DNA of 64,000 bases. Origin: Desulfuromonas sp. CSMB_57 (lineage in GTDB: Bacteria; Desulfobacterota; Desulfuromonadia; Desulfuromonadales; Syntrophotaleaceae). Below are positions 19,181 to 24,995 of this stretch, piece after piece (position 1 is the first letter of the stretch; every line of letters begins with the position of its first letter). The notes under the pieces were generated by a model that saw nothing but the letters and a program-made list of their open reading frames with translations, was not told the DNA's origin and did no database searches. The DNA is taken from NCBI RefSeq assembly GCF_020194955.2, contig NZ_JAFCIY020000006.1:124001-188000 (forward strand), in the 5' to 3' direction. The position numbers and the translations under genes were made by a program.

Positions 19181-19303
19181 TTCGACCAGAAAGAGAATTC
19201 AGTTCATCCGGCGGAAAGCACTGCGGCGACGGGTGCCGCAGCAGCAAAAAGCCGGCAAACCAGAAGGAGAAGTATTGATATGCATTCCAAGATGGAGATT
19301 AAG

Positions 19304-20395
19304 ATGAAAAAATCCGCAAAGGCCTGGTCGTCGGTGCTGGCACTGGGCCTGTGCCTGGCTCTGCCCCCCCTGTCCCACGCCACCGAACCCGAGGCGGAAA
19401 CCGGACTCGCCGAAAGGGTCGATAAACTGGAAAAATCCCTGGTCAAGGGCGGCATGAGTCGCTGGCTCGACCGCATCAGCCTGTCCGGACTCATCGAGGT
19501 GGAGGCCAATTACGAGAAATTCAAGGAATCCGGAGCCGGCAGCGAGAGTTCCAGCGACCTGACCCTGGCCACCGTGGAACTGGGCATCGATGTCGATTTC
19601 GTCAAACACGTCTCCGGCCACGTGGTGCTGCTGTGGGAGGAGGATGAAACCGAACCGCTGGACGTCGACGAAGCCTATATCCGCCTCGACGGCGAGGATG
19701 TGGTGCCGCTCTATCTGCAGGCCGGCAAGATGTATGTCCCCTTCGGCACCTTCGAAAGCCATTTCATCAGCGATCCCAACACCCTGGAACTGGGTGAAAC
19801 CCGCGAATCGGCGGCGGTGATCGGCTACGCCAACGACCAGCTCGAACTGTCCTTCGGCGTCTTCAAAGGCGACACCAAAGGGCGTCACCTCAACACCTTT
19901 GTCGCCGGCGGCGCCTATACCCTGCCGGAAGAAGCGGTTCCCGGCCTGGCCCTGACCGCCGGCGCCTCCTGGATCTCCAACCTCGCCGACAGCGACGTGC
20001 TGAGCGACGAAATCGTCAGCCTCGACGACAAGATCAACGGCATCCACGCCTTTGTCATGGCCACCCTTAACGATCGCTGGACCTTGATCGCCGAATACCT
20101 GGGTGCCCTCGACAGATTTAAGGCCGGCGAACTGGCCTTCGACGGCGGGAATGCCTTAAAGCCCAAAACCTGGAATTTCGAACTTGGTTGCGCCGTCACC
20201 GACGCCCTGACCATTGCGGCCAAGTACGAAGGCGGCGACGATCTCGGCGAATTGCTCCCGGACCGCCAATACGGCGCCGTGGCCAGCTACGCCCTGTTCA
20301 AAAACACCACGCTGTCCCTCGAGTACCTGCACGGCAAATTCGAGACCGGCGACAAGCGGGATCTGGTTACCGCCCAGCTCGCCTTCGAGTTCTAA
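19304..20395 (+). CDS. LbtU-like outer-membrane beta-barrel protein
   Basis: A 363-residue exported protein with a Sec signal peptide (MKKSAKAW then a hydrophobic run to SHA|TEPE). A short coiled-coil LAERVDKLEKSL follows, and then alternating strands end in the aromatic signature LAFEF of outer-membrane barrels. It resembles LbtU-family siderophore receptors/porins. Its place just behind feoAB suggests an iron-related passage role. ATG 19304 has GGAG at six-base spacing. An upstream ATG at 19280 is also possible, but lengthens the signal peptide. Confidence 0.85.
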   Translation: MKKSAKAWSSVLALGLCLALPPLSHATEPEAETGLAERVDKLEKSLVKGGMSRWLDRISLSGLIEVEANYEKFKESGAGSESSSDLTLATVELGIDVDFVKHVSGHVVLLWEEDETEPLDVDEAYIRLDGEDVVPLYLQAGKMYVPFGTFESHFISDPNTLELGETRESAAVIGYANDQLELSFGVFKGDTKGRHLNTFVAGGAYTLPEEAVPGLALTAGASWISNLADSDVLSDEIVSLDDKINGIHAFVMATLNDRWTLIAEYLGALDRFKAGELAFDGGNALKPKTWNFELGCAVTDALTIAAKYEGGDDLGELLPDRQYGAVASYALFKNTTLSLEYLHGKFETGDKRDLVTAQLAFEF

Positions 20396-20455: not shown

Positions 20456-20655
20456 TTCTTTCCGGATGTGTCTTCCCGAGTAATTCATACCAAGGAAAGC
20501 ACCCGCTTTCGTCCTCGTTTTGTGGCCTATGCGTCAAAACCTTTTTAGTGATCATAGGAAAATAATTCTTTTGGTAAAGCTAATCGCGGTGGAAAAAAAG
20601 TGGCTTGCATAAACAACAGGGGAATTTCAGTCGACTGAAATCCGGAAAAAACCGG

Positions 20656-21327
20656 TTAAAGAAGCCTTTCTTCTGAAGGTTTTTTGGTGACGGACTTTAA
20701 GGAATAGAGTGTAAAATATGTGAGCCAGCTTGTTATGCCGAACAATTTAAATCCATCTTCGAAAAGGTGATAATCAACAATAATCTGGGAAAATTCCGAA
20801 TAGTTGTCCACAATAATGTCAATAATTAATGATAACGAGAAGAATATAATTGAAAGCATTATAAAAAAGAAGTCGCTTTCGATTATCACATTTTTGAATA
20901 TAAGAAAATAAATACATGTAATTGCAAGGTAGAAAAAAAGAACATACTTTTGATCTAAATTAAAATAAACAGGGAAAATCCATTCATGTACAAGAAAAAA
21001 ATCATCTATCATTAAAATAGTTGTCAAGATGGCAGACGCAAGTAAAAAAAATTTTTGCAAAGGATTGCACATTTGTTTCATAGAAATCAAGAATGTAAAG
21101 AAACAGATGGTAGCCGCAGCGCACCATAAAAGAATGCCTATGTTGGAGATTGCTCCTACAAAGGGGGAGACTTGACTAATGTCTGCAGGATCTCTGGTCA
21201 GCATCCATAGAGGAATCTGTTTTTTCTTACTTACAACATATCCTGCCAGCATTAGCAGTGCCGCTGGGGTGTGAACCAAAAAGGCCAGCATCAGCCTTTT
21301 TCGAATTGGAACAACAGGATCCATCAT
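20656..21327 (-). CDS. Six-helix membrane protein of the PEP mutase operon
   Basis: A 223-residue integral membrane protein with about six hydrophobic segments (near 12-32, 58-82, 90-107, 126-145, 153-173 and 196-212). I do not recognise the family. Acidic/His residues inside or near helices are notable: D108-D109 with H114-E115, D170/D174, and E190-D191 with K194. This pattern could form a metal or substrate site in a membrane enzyme, or a transport path. It is the last gene of the operon, 78 bp after PEP mutase, and is much more AT-rich than the flanking chromosome. Confidence 0.8.
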   Translation of the reverse strand: MMDPVVPIRKRLMLAFLVHTPAALLMLAGYVVSKKKQIPLWMLTRDPADISQVSPFVGAISNIGILLWCAAATICFFTFLISMKQMCNPLQKFFLLASAILTTILMIDDFFLVHEWIFPVYFNLDQKYVLFFYLAITCIYFLIFKNVIIESDFFFIMLSIIFFSLSLIIDIIVDNYSEFSQIIVDYHLFEDGFKLFGITSWLTYFTLYSLKSVTKKPSEERLL

Positions 21328-21405
21328 GATTCTCCCTGTTTGGTAATGGTTCTTTCAATGGAGCAATCATCTATAAAATTAGAAAACGCCACAAAAGAAC
21401 CTCAA

Positions 21406-22287
21406 TTATCGGTGATGTGGTGGCAGATATTTTCGTTCGGCCTGTTGTAGTTCTTCGTTGTCAAGCAGTCGGAAGACTTCCTGGACCGAACTAATGGTGT
21501 TTTCAACAGTTACCAAAGACTGTTTTTGAAAAAGTTCCGCAGCCGTTTTCTGCATGGCTGCGATTCCGGAACGCAAAAGATGGTTGGCCCAGATGACCAT
21601 ACTGATTCCGGCTTCCCGAAACTGCACGGTCGGGGTCTGGTAATACTTGGTTGGTACGATCACAACCGGACAGGTTCCTTGCCAGGCCTTCATGAAGTTA
21701 AAAATTTCCTCGGGCGTGGATTTTTTGCTGTGCATCAGGATTGCATCGGCCCCGGCATCGCAATAGGCGGTTGCCCGCCGCAAGGCTTCCTCAATGCCCC
21801 ACCCGGCTATGAACGCTTCGACACGCGCTATCAGGCAAAAATCCGGATCTTGCTGACTATCTTTGGCGGCCTTGATCTTGCCGACGAACACTTCCGTTTC
21901 TTCCAGTGGTTGGGGGATACCTTCTAGCAGGGAGTTGTTTTTGGGGAACAATTTGTCCTCGATGCAAACTGCGGCAATACCCCTTTGCTCCAGTTTCCGA
22001 ATGAGGCGTCGGACGTTGTTGAAATTGCCATATCCGGTATCACCGTCGAGCATGATTGGGACAGTGGTCGCATCGCTCATGAATTCGGCAACATCCAGCA
22101 CCTGCGTCCAACTGGCTTCGTTGCTATCGCGCACACCCAGTGAGGCGGAGATAGCCAAACCGCTTGCCCAGATTCCCTGGAAGCCGGCTTCCTCAGCAAT
22201 TCGGGCACTCAGGCCATTGTGGGCCTCCATGATAAATTCGAGTTGAGGGGACTTAAGCAAGGCTTTGAATTGACTTGTTTTTTTCAT
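21406..22287 (-). CDS. pepM: Phosphoenolpyruvate mutase
   Basis: A 293-residue isocitrate-lyase-superfamily enzyme that rearranges PEP to phosphonopyruvate, forming the C-P bond that opens nearly all phosphonate pathways. The true-mutase signature [10 protein letters not shown] (EDK-x5-NS) is present near residue 119, with [17 protein letters not shown] and [16 protein letters not shown] before it. The start at 22287 matches the family N-terminus [14 protein letters not shown]. The longer frame is an extension into the spacer. The reaction favours PEP, so a downstream pulling step is expected. No decarboxylase gene is present, and the preceding dehydrogenase gene may serve. Confidence 0.95.
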
Positions 22288-22324
22288 TGTTTCCCCGGTT
22301 CCTGTTAAAATGTTGGGCTTTTCG

Positions 22325-23272
22325 TCACTGCCCCGGCACGGCATGGATGTTTTGTTGAACCGGGAAATTGTCGACAATTTCAATTATCCGCCGGCCGATT
22401 TCACGTTGTGAATCGACCGTCATGGCACCGATATGGGGTGTCAGGACCACGTTAGGCAGGTCTGCTAGAGGAGAAATGCGGTTTTCGCCCTCCTTCTGAT
22501 GTACGTCCAAGGCGGCTCCCGCCAGCCTGTTCCGGCGCAAGGCGTTGGATAGGGCTATCTCGTCGACGATGCCACCCCTGGCCATGTTAAGGAGGAAAGC
22601 TGTTGGTTTGAGCAGGGCCAGTTCCCGCTCGCCGATGAGGCTGTTGGTGGAGGTTTTCAAAGGAACGCAAATACATAGGTAGTCAGCGGATAAGAGCACT
22701 TCCTCAAAGCTTACAAGGTGCAGTCCGTCCTTCAGAAAATTTACAGCCCGCTCGGCGGACGGATGCTCGACACAACCCTTGACCTGCATTTTCCATGCGG
22801 CTCCCATCCGTCCGAGAAGAGAACCAATGTTTCCCATGCCGACAACGCCAAGGGTTTTTTGGGCCAATAAAAAGCCGGTCAGTTGGTGCTTCGCCCAACG
22901 ACCCTGCCGAAGCAGGCGATCAGCGACCAGGATCTGTCTCGAAAGAGCCAGCATAAGTCCAAAGGCCAATTCCGCTACGGCCTGTGCACCTGGTTCAGGA
23001 ATGCGCAACAAGGGCAGTTGCCGCCGCTGCAAGTTTTCGAGGTCGATATTGTCCAGGCCCGAACCGGCGCGTATGAGCAGTTTTAACTCGGGCGCAGCGG
23101 CCAAAAGGCGCCCGGTAATGGAAACGCCGCTACGAAAAACCAGAACCTCACAGTCGACAATCCGGCGCTCCAGTTCCCGGTCTTCGCAATTGGTGGCGTC
23201 AATAATGTCGTGCCGGGACCGCAGAACTTCAATTGTCTGTTGATCGATAGGGCTCGCCAGAAGAATTTTCAT
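22325..23272 (-). CDS. D-isomer-specific 2-hydroxyacid dehydrogenase
   Basis: A 315-residue NAD(H)-dependent dehydrogenase. The Rossmann motif [13 protein letters not shown] lies near 143. The catalytic triad is intact: Arg in [12 protein letters not shown], Glu in DVHQKEGE and His in LTPHIGAMT. Relatives include phosphoglycerate dehydrogenase. The start codon overlaps the ATP-grasp stop codon (ATGA), so the two are coupled, and PEP mutase follows 37 bp later. From context I infer reduction of phosphonopyruvate to phosphonolactate. Sequence alone proves only a 2-oxoacid/2-hydroxyacid oxidoreductase. Confidence 0.9.
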
Positions 23273-24507
23273 GTCTTTCCTTTGAGATGGGGCAGAAGGG
23301 TGCACGACAAGTCTTTTAGTTCAAATAACTTTTTTTTCAGCGTTCGGTAAATGGGCGGCAGGAGATCCGCCCAGAAGGGCAACGGATCTCGCCAAGAAAA
23401 GATGGCATAGGCTTTTCGGCCACGCACTGATGATAACCATTGTTTCAATGAAAGTTGGCCACAGCGCCGGTATTGGTAGGCGGCCTGAAGGTCCTGTCGA
23501 AGATAAATCCATTTTACGCCTGTGTAGTGTTGTACACGGGTTTCGGGTAACGGCCGGCCCAGCAAGTCACAATACATGGTATAAAGCAGATCTACACCGC
23601 CAGCCTCGGCGATGGCCGACCTGCCGGTCGGTCGGCAAATGTTCGGTTCAACAATGAAATACTCCCCCGATTTTTCATCGAGCTTCATTTCTAGGTATCC
23701 GAGCCCACGAAAATTCACAGCCCGGTAAAGACGCAGGGTTTCATTTAATACCAGGTCGTTGCGGCATTCCACGCCCAGTGAACTTCTACCCATTTCCGGA
23801 GGCCATTGACGCAGTTTTTTAGCTACAAATGTCGCCAAGGGTTTGGACTCGGCATCAAAATATACATTGCAGGAATACAGATTGGAATCCGGGCCCTCTA
23901 TCCAGTCTTGCAAAATGAAACACTCCGTGGCCTCTTTGAGTTTTTCATAAAGTAGTTGGAGGTCTTTTGGAGAAGAAACCTTGAACGCCTTGACATTAGA
24001 AAGACTATACCAAAGAGGGGTAATAAAATGAGGTTTAAAAACACAAGGGAACCGCAAATTCTCAATCGCTTCATCAAGATCCGATTGACTATAAATAAAA
24101 AAGGTGTTTGGAATTTTGAAACCATATTTTTGGGCATACTTATAAAAACTCAGCTTATCAATCATCATTTCCACAACTTCTGGTTGCGGTAGTTGAAAAT
24201 AGAAGAATTCTTTTAAAATTTCGCGGTTTTTTGAAACAAGCAACACATCTTCTTCTCTACAAGTGTATAAAACGGATTTTTTTTGATTTTTTTTGCCAAT
24301 TGATATTAAGGTTTCAAGATAATTGTCATTTTCGAGTTTAACTTTTTTGCAGCAATTTGTTCGATAAAAAGGATGATTTTGGCGATCTACAATAGAAACA
24401 ACAGGTAATTTGTGTCGAAATGAAAGAATACGAGCCGCCTGAAGACTTTGAAACTCGTCAAGATTAGTCAAAACTGCAAATGGATTAACATTCGCATTGA
24501 ATAACAT
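23269..24507 (-). CDS. ATP-grasp ligase
   Basis: A 412-residue ATP-grasp protein of the carboxylate-amine ligase type. Visible marks are an N-terminal pre-ATP-grasp region, the nucleotide-binding strand FPCVFKPHF near 155, FILQDWIEG near 200, and the metal-binding FIVEPNICRPTGRSA near 290. Such enzymes join a carboxylate to an amine through an acyl-phosphate. As first gene of the PEP mutase operon it may attach an amino acid or other group to the phosphonate. It is AT-rich, particularly in its 5' half. AAGGAA precedes the ATG. The substrate is unknown. Confidence 0.85.
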   Translation of the reverse strand: MLFNANVNPFAVLTNLDEFQSLQAARILSFRHKLPVVSIVDRQNHPFYRTNCCKKVKLENDNYLETLISIGKKNQKKSVLYTCREEDVLLVSKNREILKEFFYFQLPQPEVVEMMIDKLSFYKYAQKYGFKIPNTFFIYSQSDLDEAIENLRFPCVFKPHFITPLWYSLSNVKAFKVSSPKDLQLLYEKLKEATECFILQDWIEGPDSNLYSCNVYFDAESKPLATFVAKKLRQWPPEMGRSSLGVECRNDLVLNETLRLYRAVNFRGLGYLEMKLDEKSGEYFIVEPNICRPTGRSAIAEAGGVDLLYTMYCDLLGRPLPETRVQHYTGVKWIYLRQDLQAAYQYRRCGQLSLKQWLSSVRGRKAYAIFSWRDPLPFWADLLPPIYRTLKKKLFELKDLSCTLLPHLKGKT

Positions 24508-24594: not shown

Positions 24595-24622
24595 AATATA
24601 TCGACAACAATTCAACTGTCAA
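24595..24622 (-). promoter_or_regulatory. Sigma-70 promoter of the PEP mutase operon
   Basis: On the minus strand TTGACA (24622-24617), 16 bp, then TATATT (24600-24595), about 88 bp before the ATP-grasp start. It is a near-consensus match in an AT-rich leader. Confidence 0.7.
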
Positions 24623-24908: not shown

Positions 24909-24995
24909 TGGTGCCGAAGGCGAGACTCGAACTCGCATGGGCTTTCGCCCGCCACCCCCTCAAGATGGTGTGTCTACCAGTTCCACCACTTCGGC
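24909..24995 (-). tRNA. tRNA-Leu(GAG)
   Basis: An 87-nt class II tRNA with encoded CCA. The acceptor stem is GCCGAAG/CTTCGGC, the anticodon stem CCATC/GGTGG with loop TTGAGGG giving anticodon GAG, and the variable arm is long (GGGCGAAAGCCC). The T loop is TTCGAGT. It reads CUC and CUU codons. Confidence 0.95.

What the first reader, a model, noticed from the sequence alone, without database searches (positions are those of the whole stretch)
20656..24507. Unusual phosphonate operon: ATP-grasp, 2-hydroxyacid dehydrogenase, PEP mutase, membrane protein, no decarboxylase
PEP mutase carries the full EDK-x5-NS signature, so C-P bond formation is likely. The common next enzyme, phosphonopyruvate decarboxylase, is absent from the window. 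Instead a complete 2-hydroxyacid dehydrogenase is translationally coupled to an ATP-grasp ligase. Reduction of phosphonopyruvate to phosphonolactate would pull the mutase reaction, as reported for the valinophos-type route. The ligase could then conjugate the product. The product may be a phosphonate natural product or a cell-surface modification.
Basis: partly seen in the sequence, partly recalled or inferred. Interest (0 to 1): 0.85.

Follow-up and report, generated by a model that had tools for sequence, protein, structure and literature searches.

The report
Phosphonate cassette for surface sugars
Four neighbouring bacterial genes very probably make a carbon-phosphorus compound, phosphonolactate, by a less common route and join it to something else, most likely a cell-surface sugar polymer, because the same enzyme trio sits inside polysaccharide gene clusters in unrelated bacteria.

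Summary
On the minus strand, 24507 to 20656, lie an ATP-grasp ligase, a D-2-hydroxyacid dehydrogenase (DH) overlapping it by ATGA, a PEP mutase, and a 5-6-helix membrane protein. The mutase is 68% identical to the solved Mytilus enzyme and keeps every catalytic residue checked. No phosphonopyruvate decarboxylase reaches its family cut-off anywhere in the genome. The same order occurs in four other species of the family, followed there by a GNAT-like transferase gene. The DH-PepM-ATP-grasp trio recurs, in other orders, in a distant family of the phylum and in Ignavibacterium, both times inside exopolysaccharide loci. The dehydrogenases form one clade, separate from the genome's two SerA enzymes, yet keep SerA's phosphate-binding arginines and catalytic triad. 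Best reading: PEP to phosphonopyruvate to phosphonolactate, then ATP-driven conjugation, probably onto a surface glycan. The first two steps are well supported by homology and linkage; the ligase's substrate and the destination are inferred. One genome has the ligase and membrane protein but no good PepM. The dehydrogenase route is already published (valinophos); the compact, surface-glycan-linked cassette with its own ligase appears to be a new variant. The primary papers could not be read, so prior description is not excluded.

The parts
24595..24622 (-). sigma-70-like promoter, TTGACA-16-TATATT, about 88 bp upstream of the ligase start
   Evidence: consensus scan, 11 of 12 matches; not evidence of function by itself
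23269..24507 (-). ATP-grasp ligase (412 aa), carbamoyl-phosphate-synthase-like branch
   Evidence: NCBIfam PRK12767 E 2.8e-17; 45-58% identical to six homologues in other genomes, with K158, E273, E287 and N289 invariant
22325..23272 (-). D-2-hydroxyacid dehydrogenase, predicted phosphonopyruvate reductase; start corrected to ATG 23272 (ATGA overlap with ligase stop)
   Evidence: Pfam PF02826 and PF00389; nearest solved sequences are phosphoglycerate dehydrogenases; catalytic R/E/H and two phosphate-site Arg kept
21406..22287 (-). phosphoenolpyruvate mutase (PepM, 293 aa), start corrected to ATG 22287
   Evidence: TIGR02320 above cut-off; 68% identity to Mytilus PepM with all catalytic residues checked
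21931..21960 (-). EDK-x5-NS catalytic motif of PepM ([10 protein letters not shown])
   Evidence: read directly; E114/K120/N122 of Mytilus PepM
20656..21327 (-). membrane protein of 223 aa, unknown family, conserved T-x-D, SN, DDxxxxHE, D and E-x-G-x-K positions
   Evidence: no Pfam or NCBIfam hit; 42-44% identity to the gene in the same place in four relatives; five hydropathy peaks, six long helices in the model
20622..20643 (-). terminator-like hairpin 13 bp past the membrane-protein stop
   Evidence: pattern scan, 9 pairs; number of such sites in the region is near the shuffled mean

Best explanation
This is a phosphonate-making and -conjugating operon. PepM turns PEP into phosphonopyruvate (shown by homology and full active site). 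The SerA-like dehydrogenase then reduces phosphonopyruvate with NAD(H) to phosphonolactate, which pulls the unfavourable mutase reaction forward in place of a decarboxylase (inferred from strict linkage, separate clade and kept phosphate-binding residues). The ATP-grasp ligase activates a carboxylate, most likely that of phosphonolactate, and joins it to an amine or hydroxyl (inferred from enzyme class). The product most likely ends up on a surface polysaccharide, with a GNAT/FemAB-like transferase (fifth gene in four relatives; two paralogues in this genome's polysaccharide locus about 34-49 kb upstream of the window) taking part in the transfer (inferred from context). The membrane protein may handle the product at the membrane, but it is not essential to the idea.
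For: PepM complete. Only one PepM in the genome. No Ppd over cut-off in any of six cassette genomes checked, while PepM of other families in the same phylum (L082, L083, L085) is followed directly by Ppd. Same order of ligase, DH, PepM and membrane protein in five species of the family. Trio with rearranged order in G419 (DH-PepM-ligase) and Ignavibacterium (DH-PepM-2 genes-ligase), at 46-51% (ligase, DH) and 66-67% (PepM) identity. These two are inside surface-polysaccharide loci: Wza/Wzc-like, UDP-GlcNAc 2-epimerase, FemAB, glycosyltransferases, Wzx/Wzy-like. DHs form one clade at 100/100 support apart from the two SerA copies of the genome, with R54, R75 and the R/E/H triad kept. DH-linked PepMs group together with Mytilus at 99/96. 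Ligase and fifth-gene paralogues are adjacent inside polysaccharide loci of relatives. Distant relatives of the ligase sit directly beside Acetyltransf_6 or polysaccharide deacetylase genes. No C-P lyase PhnJ in seven genomes, against a degradative role.
Against: In the window's own lineage the operon is not inside a polysaccharide locus; its neighbours are secG/tpiA/pgk on one side and a porin on the other. The Anaerolineae genome that has a 49% identical ligase followed by the membrane protein shows no good PepM (best match 26%, E 1e-5), so ligase and membrane protein can exist without phosphonate. The membrane protein also occurs alone in other genomes. The fifth gene's transferase identity is weak and it is missing from the window's operon. 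Substrates cannot be read from sequence.
Confidence: 0.5

Rival explanations
1. The operon makes a small diffusible phosphonate (a phosphonolactate amide or ester, or short peptide), as in valinophos or pantaphos clusters, not a polymer decoration.
For: ATP-grasp enzymes join amino acids to phosphonates in known clusters: VlpF esterifies valine in valinophos (PMC12723261); pantaphos clusters carry ATP-grasp and N-acetyltransferase genes (PMC7858074). In the window the operon stands alone, outside any polysaccharide locus.
Against: No exporter of MFS or ABC type in the operon and no further tailoring enzymes. In two other lineages the trio is inside polysaccharide loci.
Confidence: 0.27
2. PepM makes phosphonopyruvate, but the dehydrogenase works on another 2-oxoacid (for instance a 3-phosphohydroxypyruvate-like compound) and the phosphonate follows an unknown route.
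For: The DH's best family and structure matches are phosphoglycerate dehydrogenases, and it keeps their phosphate-binding arginines.
Against: The genome already has two other SerA-like genes; the PepM-linked DHs are a separate clade with their own DVHxxEG loop. The DH is next to PepM in all seven cassette genomes, and no other pulling enzyme (Ppd) is present.
Confidence: 0.12
3. The genes run in the degradative direction: a conjugated phosphonolactate is taken up, oxidised to phosphonopyruvate and converted by PepM to PEP, the thermodynamically easy direction.
For: PepM equilibrium favours PEP by more than 500-fold (PMC12871164).
Against: An ATP-consuming ligase and no uptake system in the operon; the polysaccharide context in other lineages; no PhnJ in the genomes. 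No organism is known to me that grows this way.
Confidence: 0.05
4. The ligase and membrane protein are an older surface-polymer pair unrelated to phosphonate, and PepM-DH merely happens to be inserted between them.
For: Anaerolineae L048 has the pair without a good PepM; the membrane protein occurs alone elsewhere.
Against: Ligase plus DH plus PepM is kept without the membrane protein in G419 and Ignavibacterium, with different orders, so the ligase tracks PepM-DH independently. Both genomes with the close ligase, out of 395 in the phylum sample, are among the 11 with true PepM (chance about 7e-4, though one of the two is the query genome itself).
Confidence: 0.06

Closest known systems
Valinophos pathway (Streptomyces durhamensis; PepM, phosphonopyruvate reductase VlpB, ATP-grasp VlpF)
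   Same: PepM with a 2-hydroxyacid dehydrogenase in place of a decarboxylase, plus an ATP-grasp ligase (route cited in PMC12871164; VlpF in PMC12723261).
   Different: The kinase and reductase that carry phosphonolactate on to dihydroxypropylphosphonate in valinophos (from my knowledge) are not in this operon; Gram-negative host; polysaccharide context in sister loci.
AEP phosphonoglycan pathways (Ppd, AEP transaminase, CMP activation by PntC)
   Same: PepM-dependent phosphonate destined for surface glycans (PMC6697681).
   Different: No Ppd in the genome; PepM not fused to a nucleotidyltransferase as it is in other members of the phylum; a ligase is present, which suggests carboxyl activation, not CMP activation.
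Pantaphos (hvr) clusters
   Same: PepM with ATP-grasp and N-acetyltransferase genes (PMC7858074).
   Different: Pantaphos pulls the mutase with a condensation with acetyl-CoA; none of those genes is here.
3-Phosphoglycerate dehydrogenase (SerA)
   Same: Closest solved relatives of the DH, shared catalytic triad and phosphate-site arginines.
   Different: Far below the SerA equivalog cut-off (248 against 454 bits), shorter, separate clade, DVHxxEG loop in place of DVFxxEP.

Membership tests
PEP mutase (PepM, TIGR02320) | Score above the curated equivalog cut-off | tested here: met
   394.9 bits, cut-off 319.55; phosphonopyruvate hydrolase model 245 against its cut-off 374.4
PEP mutase (PepM, TIGR02320) | EDK-x5-NS motif and catalytic D58, D85, D87, E114, K120, N122, R159, H190 (Mytilus numbering) | tested here: met
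   all identical
PEP mutase (PepM, TIGR02320) | Mutase activity | not testable with these tools
   needs enzyme assay
Phosphonopyruvate reductase (VlpB-type) | 2-hydroxyacid dehydrogenase fold with intact R/E/H triad and NAD site | tested here: met
   Pfam PF02826/PF00389; triad aligned; acidic residue in the GCVE stretch after the GxGxxG in four of five homologues
Phosphonopyruvate reductase (VlpB-type) | Genetic linkage to pepM | tested here: met
   adjacent in seven genomes
Phosphonopyruvate reductase (VlpB-type) | Sequence relationship to VlpB | not tested
   VlpB sequence and paper not available here
Valinophos pathway | Phosphonolactate kinase and acyl-phosphate reductase in the cluster | tested here: not met
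   the four operon genes are ligase, DH, PepM and an unassigned membrane protein; genome not searched for distant copies
AEP / Ppd phosphonate pathway | Phosphonopyruvate decarboxylase | tested here: not met
   no match over cut-off in six genomes; positive contrast in other genomes of the phylum
ATP-grasp superfamily | Family score and conserved ATP/Mg residues | tested here: met
   PRK12767 models in all seven members, invariant K158, E273, E287, N289; no Pfam match over cut-off
SerA phosphoglycerate dehydrogenase | Equivalog cut-off | tested here: not met
   248.3 against 454 bits
FemAB/GNAT transferase (fifth gene of relatives) | Profile similarity to FemAB/GNAT | tested here: inconclusive
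   Pfam Acetyltransf_1 at best E 0.012; hhalign 49% probability against FemAB set; model unreliable, pLDDT 37

The most novel reading that the evidence does not exclude
A class of bacterial surface glycans carries phosphonolactate attached through its carboxyl group (amide or ester made by an ATP-grasp ligase with FemAB/GNAT-like transferases), leaving the phosphonate free, in contrast to known phosphonoglycans built from CMP-activated aminoethylphosphonate. The DH-PepM-ligase trio is its portable precursor cassette, shared between distant phyla.
Probability: 0.33. Interest if true: 0.72.

Novelty: new variant of a known kind. Interest (0 to 1): 0.52.

Why it matters
Most PepM-bearing bacteria are thought to put phosphonates on their surfaces, but few tailoring routes beyond aminoethylphosphonate are worked out. 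This cassette offers a short, testable one: reduction in place of decarboxylation, carboxyl ligation in place of CMP activation. It gives sequence markers (the DH clade with DVHxxEG next to PepM, and its ligase) for spotting it in other genomes, and it would add a source of polymer-bound C-P compounds from organisms related to MAGs labelled Pelobacter.

Tried and rejected
Structure of the membrane protein: AlphaFold2 gave a helical model (pLDDT 71, pTM 0.72), but Foldseek found nothing with E below 3.6 and the second aligner only middling helical-bundle matches with Z up to 7.4, so no fold is claimed. A link to the ceramidase-like (CREST) group, suggested to me by its conserved D and H residues, could not be supported. 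Structure of the fifth gene failed (pLDDT 37, two sequences) and was not searched. The two key papers (valinophos; inventory of early branch points) are not in the library. Literature searches for PEP mutase with ATP-grasp and exopolysaccharide found no description of this cassette. ATP-grasp profile against solved structures: nothing at E 0.01. Direct repeats that would mark an integration event at the tRNA-Leu beside the operon: none found. Plasmid search found only distant ligases (30%), e.g. in a Priestia locus with a glycosyltransferase and a PIG-L deacetylase. A search of the genome with the general nucleotidyltransferase model PF12804 gave ten ordinary matches and was not informative.
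Full report
What is there. The operon is read on the minus strand. A promoter-like site at 24622-24595 precedes an ATP-grasp ligase (24507-23269). The dehydrogenase follows with a 4-bp ATGA overlap, if the start conserved among its relatives is taken (ATG at 23272). PepM follows after 37 bp (start ATG 22287), then, after 78 bp, a 223-aa membrane protein (21327-20656), and a terminator-like hairpin. Upstream lie a tRNA-Leu (24909-24995) and the secG, tpiA and pgk genes (my reading of the ORFs); downstream, on the other strand, an LbtU-type porin. The ligase's first half and the membrane gene are AT-rich (34-35% G+C) against 60% for the window, which suggests that at least these parts came from elsewhere.

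PepM is a real mutase by every test available. It passes the TIGR02320 cut-off, and falls well below the hydrolase cut-off. It is 68% identical to Mytilus PepM over 290 residues, with nine of nine active-site positions checked identical. It is the only PF13714 match in the genome.

No decarboxylase. No phosphonopyruvate decarboxylase reaches its cut-off in this genome, in four relatives with the operon or in the Ignavibacterium genome; only weak TPP-enzyme matches appear. The method does find Ppd where it exists: in L082, L083 and L085, PepM of other families of the phylum is directly followed by a protein that passes the Ppd cut-off by more than 100 bits.

The dehydrogenase. It is a D-2-hydroxyacid dehydrogenase whose nearest solved relatives are phosphoglycerate dehydrogenases, but it misses the SerA cut-off by 200 bits. 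The genome has two other, longer SerA-like genes at 32% identity. In a tree, PepM-linked DHs from seven genomes form one clade (100/100), apart from those SerA copies and from human and Pyrococcus SerA. They keep the catalytic Arg, Glu and His and the arginines that align with human R54 and R75, which I recall as binding the substrate's phosphate, and share a loop DVHxxEG where SerA has DVFxxEP or similar. A phosphonate analogue of the SerA-type substrate is therefore chemically reasonable. That a 2-hydroxyacid dehydrogenase can pull PepM by making phosphonolactate is published (cited in PMC12871164).

Conservation of the set. Order ligase, DH, PepM, membrane protein is kept in G001, G004, G007 and G013, from another genus of the family, with a fifth gene following in all four. 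The operon lies next to different genes in the two genera. A scan of 11.3 million genome contigs with the ligase returned, besides these, Anaerolineae HKST-UBA12 and Ignavibacterium bin94. A sample of 395 genomes of the phylum gave one more close case, G419. In G419 the order is DH-PepM-ligase; in Ignavibacterium DH-PepM, two other genes, ligase. Keeping three genes together while their order changes is the strongest evidence here for a shared function. In a sample of 345 genomes of the Ignavibacterium's phylum no other close ligase appeared, so the cassette is rare there.

Where the set sits. In Ignavibacterium it is between Wza- and Wzc-like genes and a UDP-GlcNAc 2-epimerase, with FemAB/Acetyltransf_6 proteins on both sides. 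In G419 it is among DegT-like aminotransferase, FemAB, glycosyltransferase and Wzx/Wzy-like genes (only one FemAB-like protein tested by Pfam, the rest named by eye). Distant relatives of the ligase in another phylum sit directly beside Acetyltransf_6 genes (four loci) or polysaccharide deacetylases (two loci), and a Priestia relative is beside a glycosyltransferase and near a PIG-L deacetylase. In two relatives with the operon, a second ligase and a second copy of the fifth gene are adjacent inside a polysaccharide locus. In the window's genome two paralogues of the fifth gene lie in a polysaccharide locus at C60:69-96 kb, about 34-49 kb upstream of the window start.

The fifth gene and the membrane protein. 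The fifth gene is probably a GNAT/FemAB-like transferase, but the evidence is weak: Pfam Acetyltransf_1 at best E 0.012 and a 49% hhalign match ending at the shared 'GL..YK' region. The membrane protein has no family and no fold match. Its conserved DDxxxxHE, D and E-x-G-x-K positions could be an active or binding site, but it also occurs alone in other genomes.

Mechanism and confidence. My separate estimates: PepM makes phosphonopyruvate, 0.95; DH reduces it to phosphonolactate, 0.85; ligase acts on phosphonolactate's carboxyl group, 0.55; destination a surface glycan, 0.6. The first rests on homology with all active-site residues, the second on homology, linkage and a published precedent, the last two on enzyme class and context only.

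What speaks against it. The Anaerolineae genome has the ligase and membrane protein, inside a surface-polysaccharide-like locus, but no good PepM in 9.8 Mb, though it is a MAG and its ligase contig is only 10 kb. So the ligase family is wider than phosphonate. The operon in the window is not itself in a polysaccharide locus. Small-molecule phosphonate clusters also use ATP-grasp ligases (PMC7858074, PMC12723261). The tree of PepM contains long branches and draws its comparison rows mostly from one phylum.

Novelty. PepM plus dehydrogenase is a known route (valinophos, described by its authors as broadly conserved, from the title cited), and surface phosphonates are known (PMC6697681). A compact trio of PepM, SerA-like DH and ligase shared by distant phyla and lodged in polysaccharide loci was not found in the papers searched, but the two most relevant papers were not available. 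I file it as a new variant of a known kind.

Noticed in passing
own genome G000:C60:68984-95627 (L042, L043), outside the window: A large surface-polysaccharide locus with glycosyltransferases, a PglC-like sugar transferase, a DegT-like aminotransferase, two paralogues of the fifth gene, a FemAB-like protein and another ATP-grasp gene directly beside a PLP decarboxylase-like gene (names by eye).
   Followed up: partly
window 24909-24995 and 20656-24507: tRNA-Leu (GAG) directly upstream of the operon, whose outer genes are much more AT-rich than the rest of the window; no direct repeats that would mark an integrated element were found.
   Followed up: partly
window 19280-20395: LbtU-family siderophore porin (267 bits, cut-off 90) convergent with the operon.
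   Followed up: no
L048:5031-7102: Anaerolineae locus with ligase and membrane protein side by side, among UDP-glucose dehydrogenase-like, sulfotransferase-like and FemAB genes, with no good PepM in the genome: the pair may conjugate another acid.
   Followed up: partly
L049:9241-9945 and L116:6987-7856: A P-loop kinase (thymidylate-kinase-like by Pfam in L049; the L116 protein looks alike by eye) accompanies the trio in both polysaccharide loci but not in the window's lineage; role unknown.
   Followed up: no
L087:562-2352, L086:664-2325: PepM of other families in the phylum is fused to a C-terminal nucleotidyltransferase-like domain (weak Arch_glmU match), a different phosphonate architecture.
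   Followed up: no
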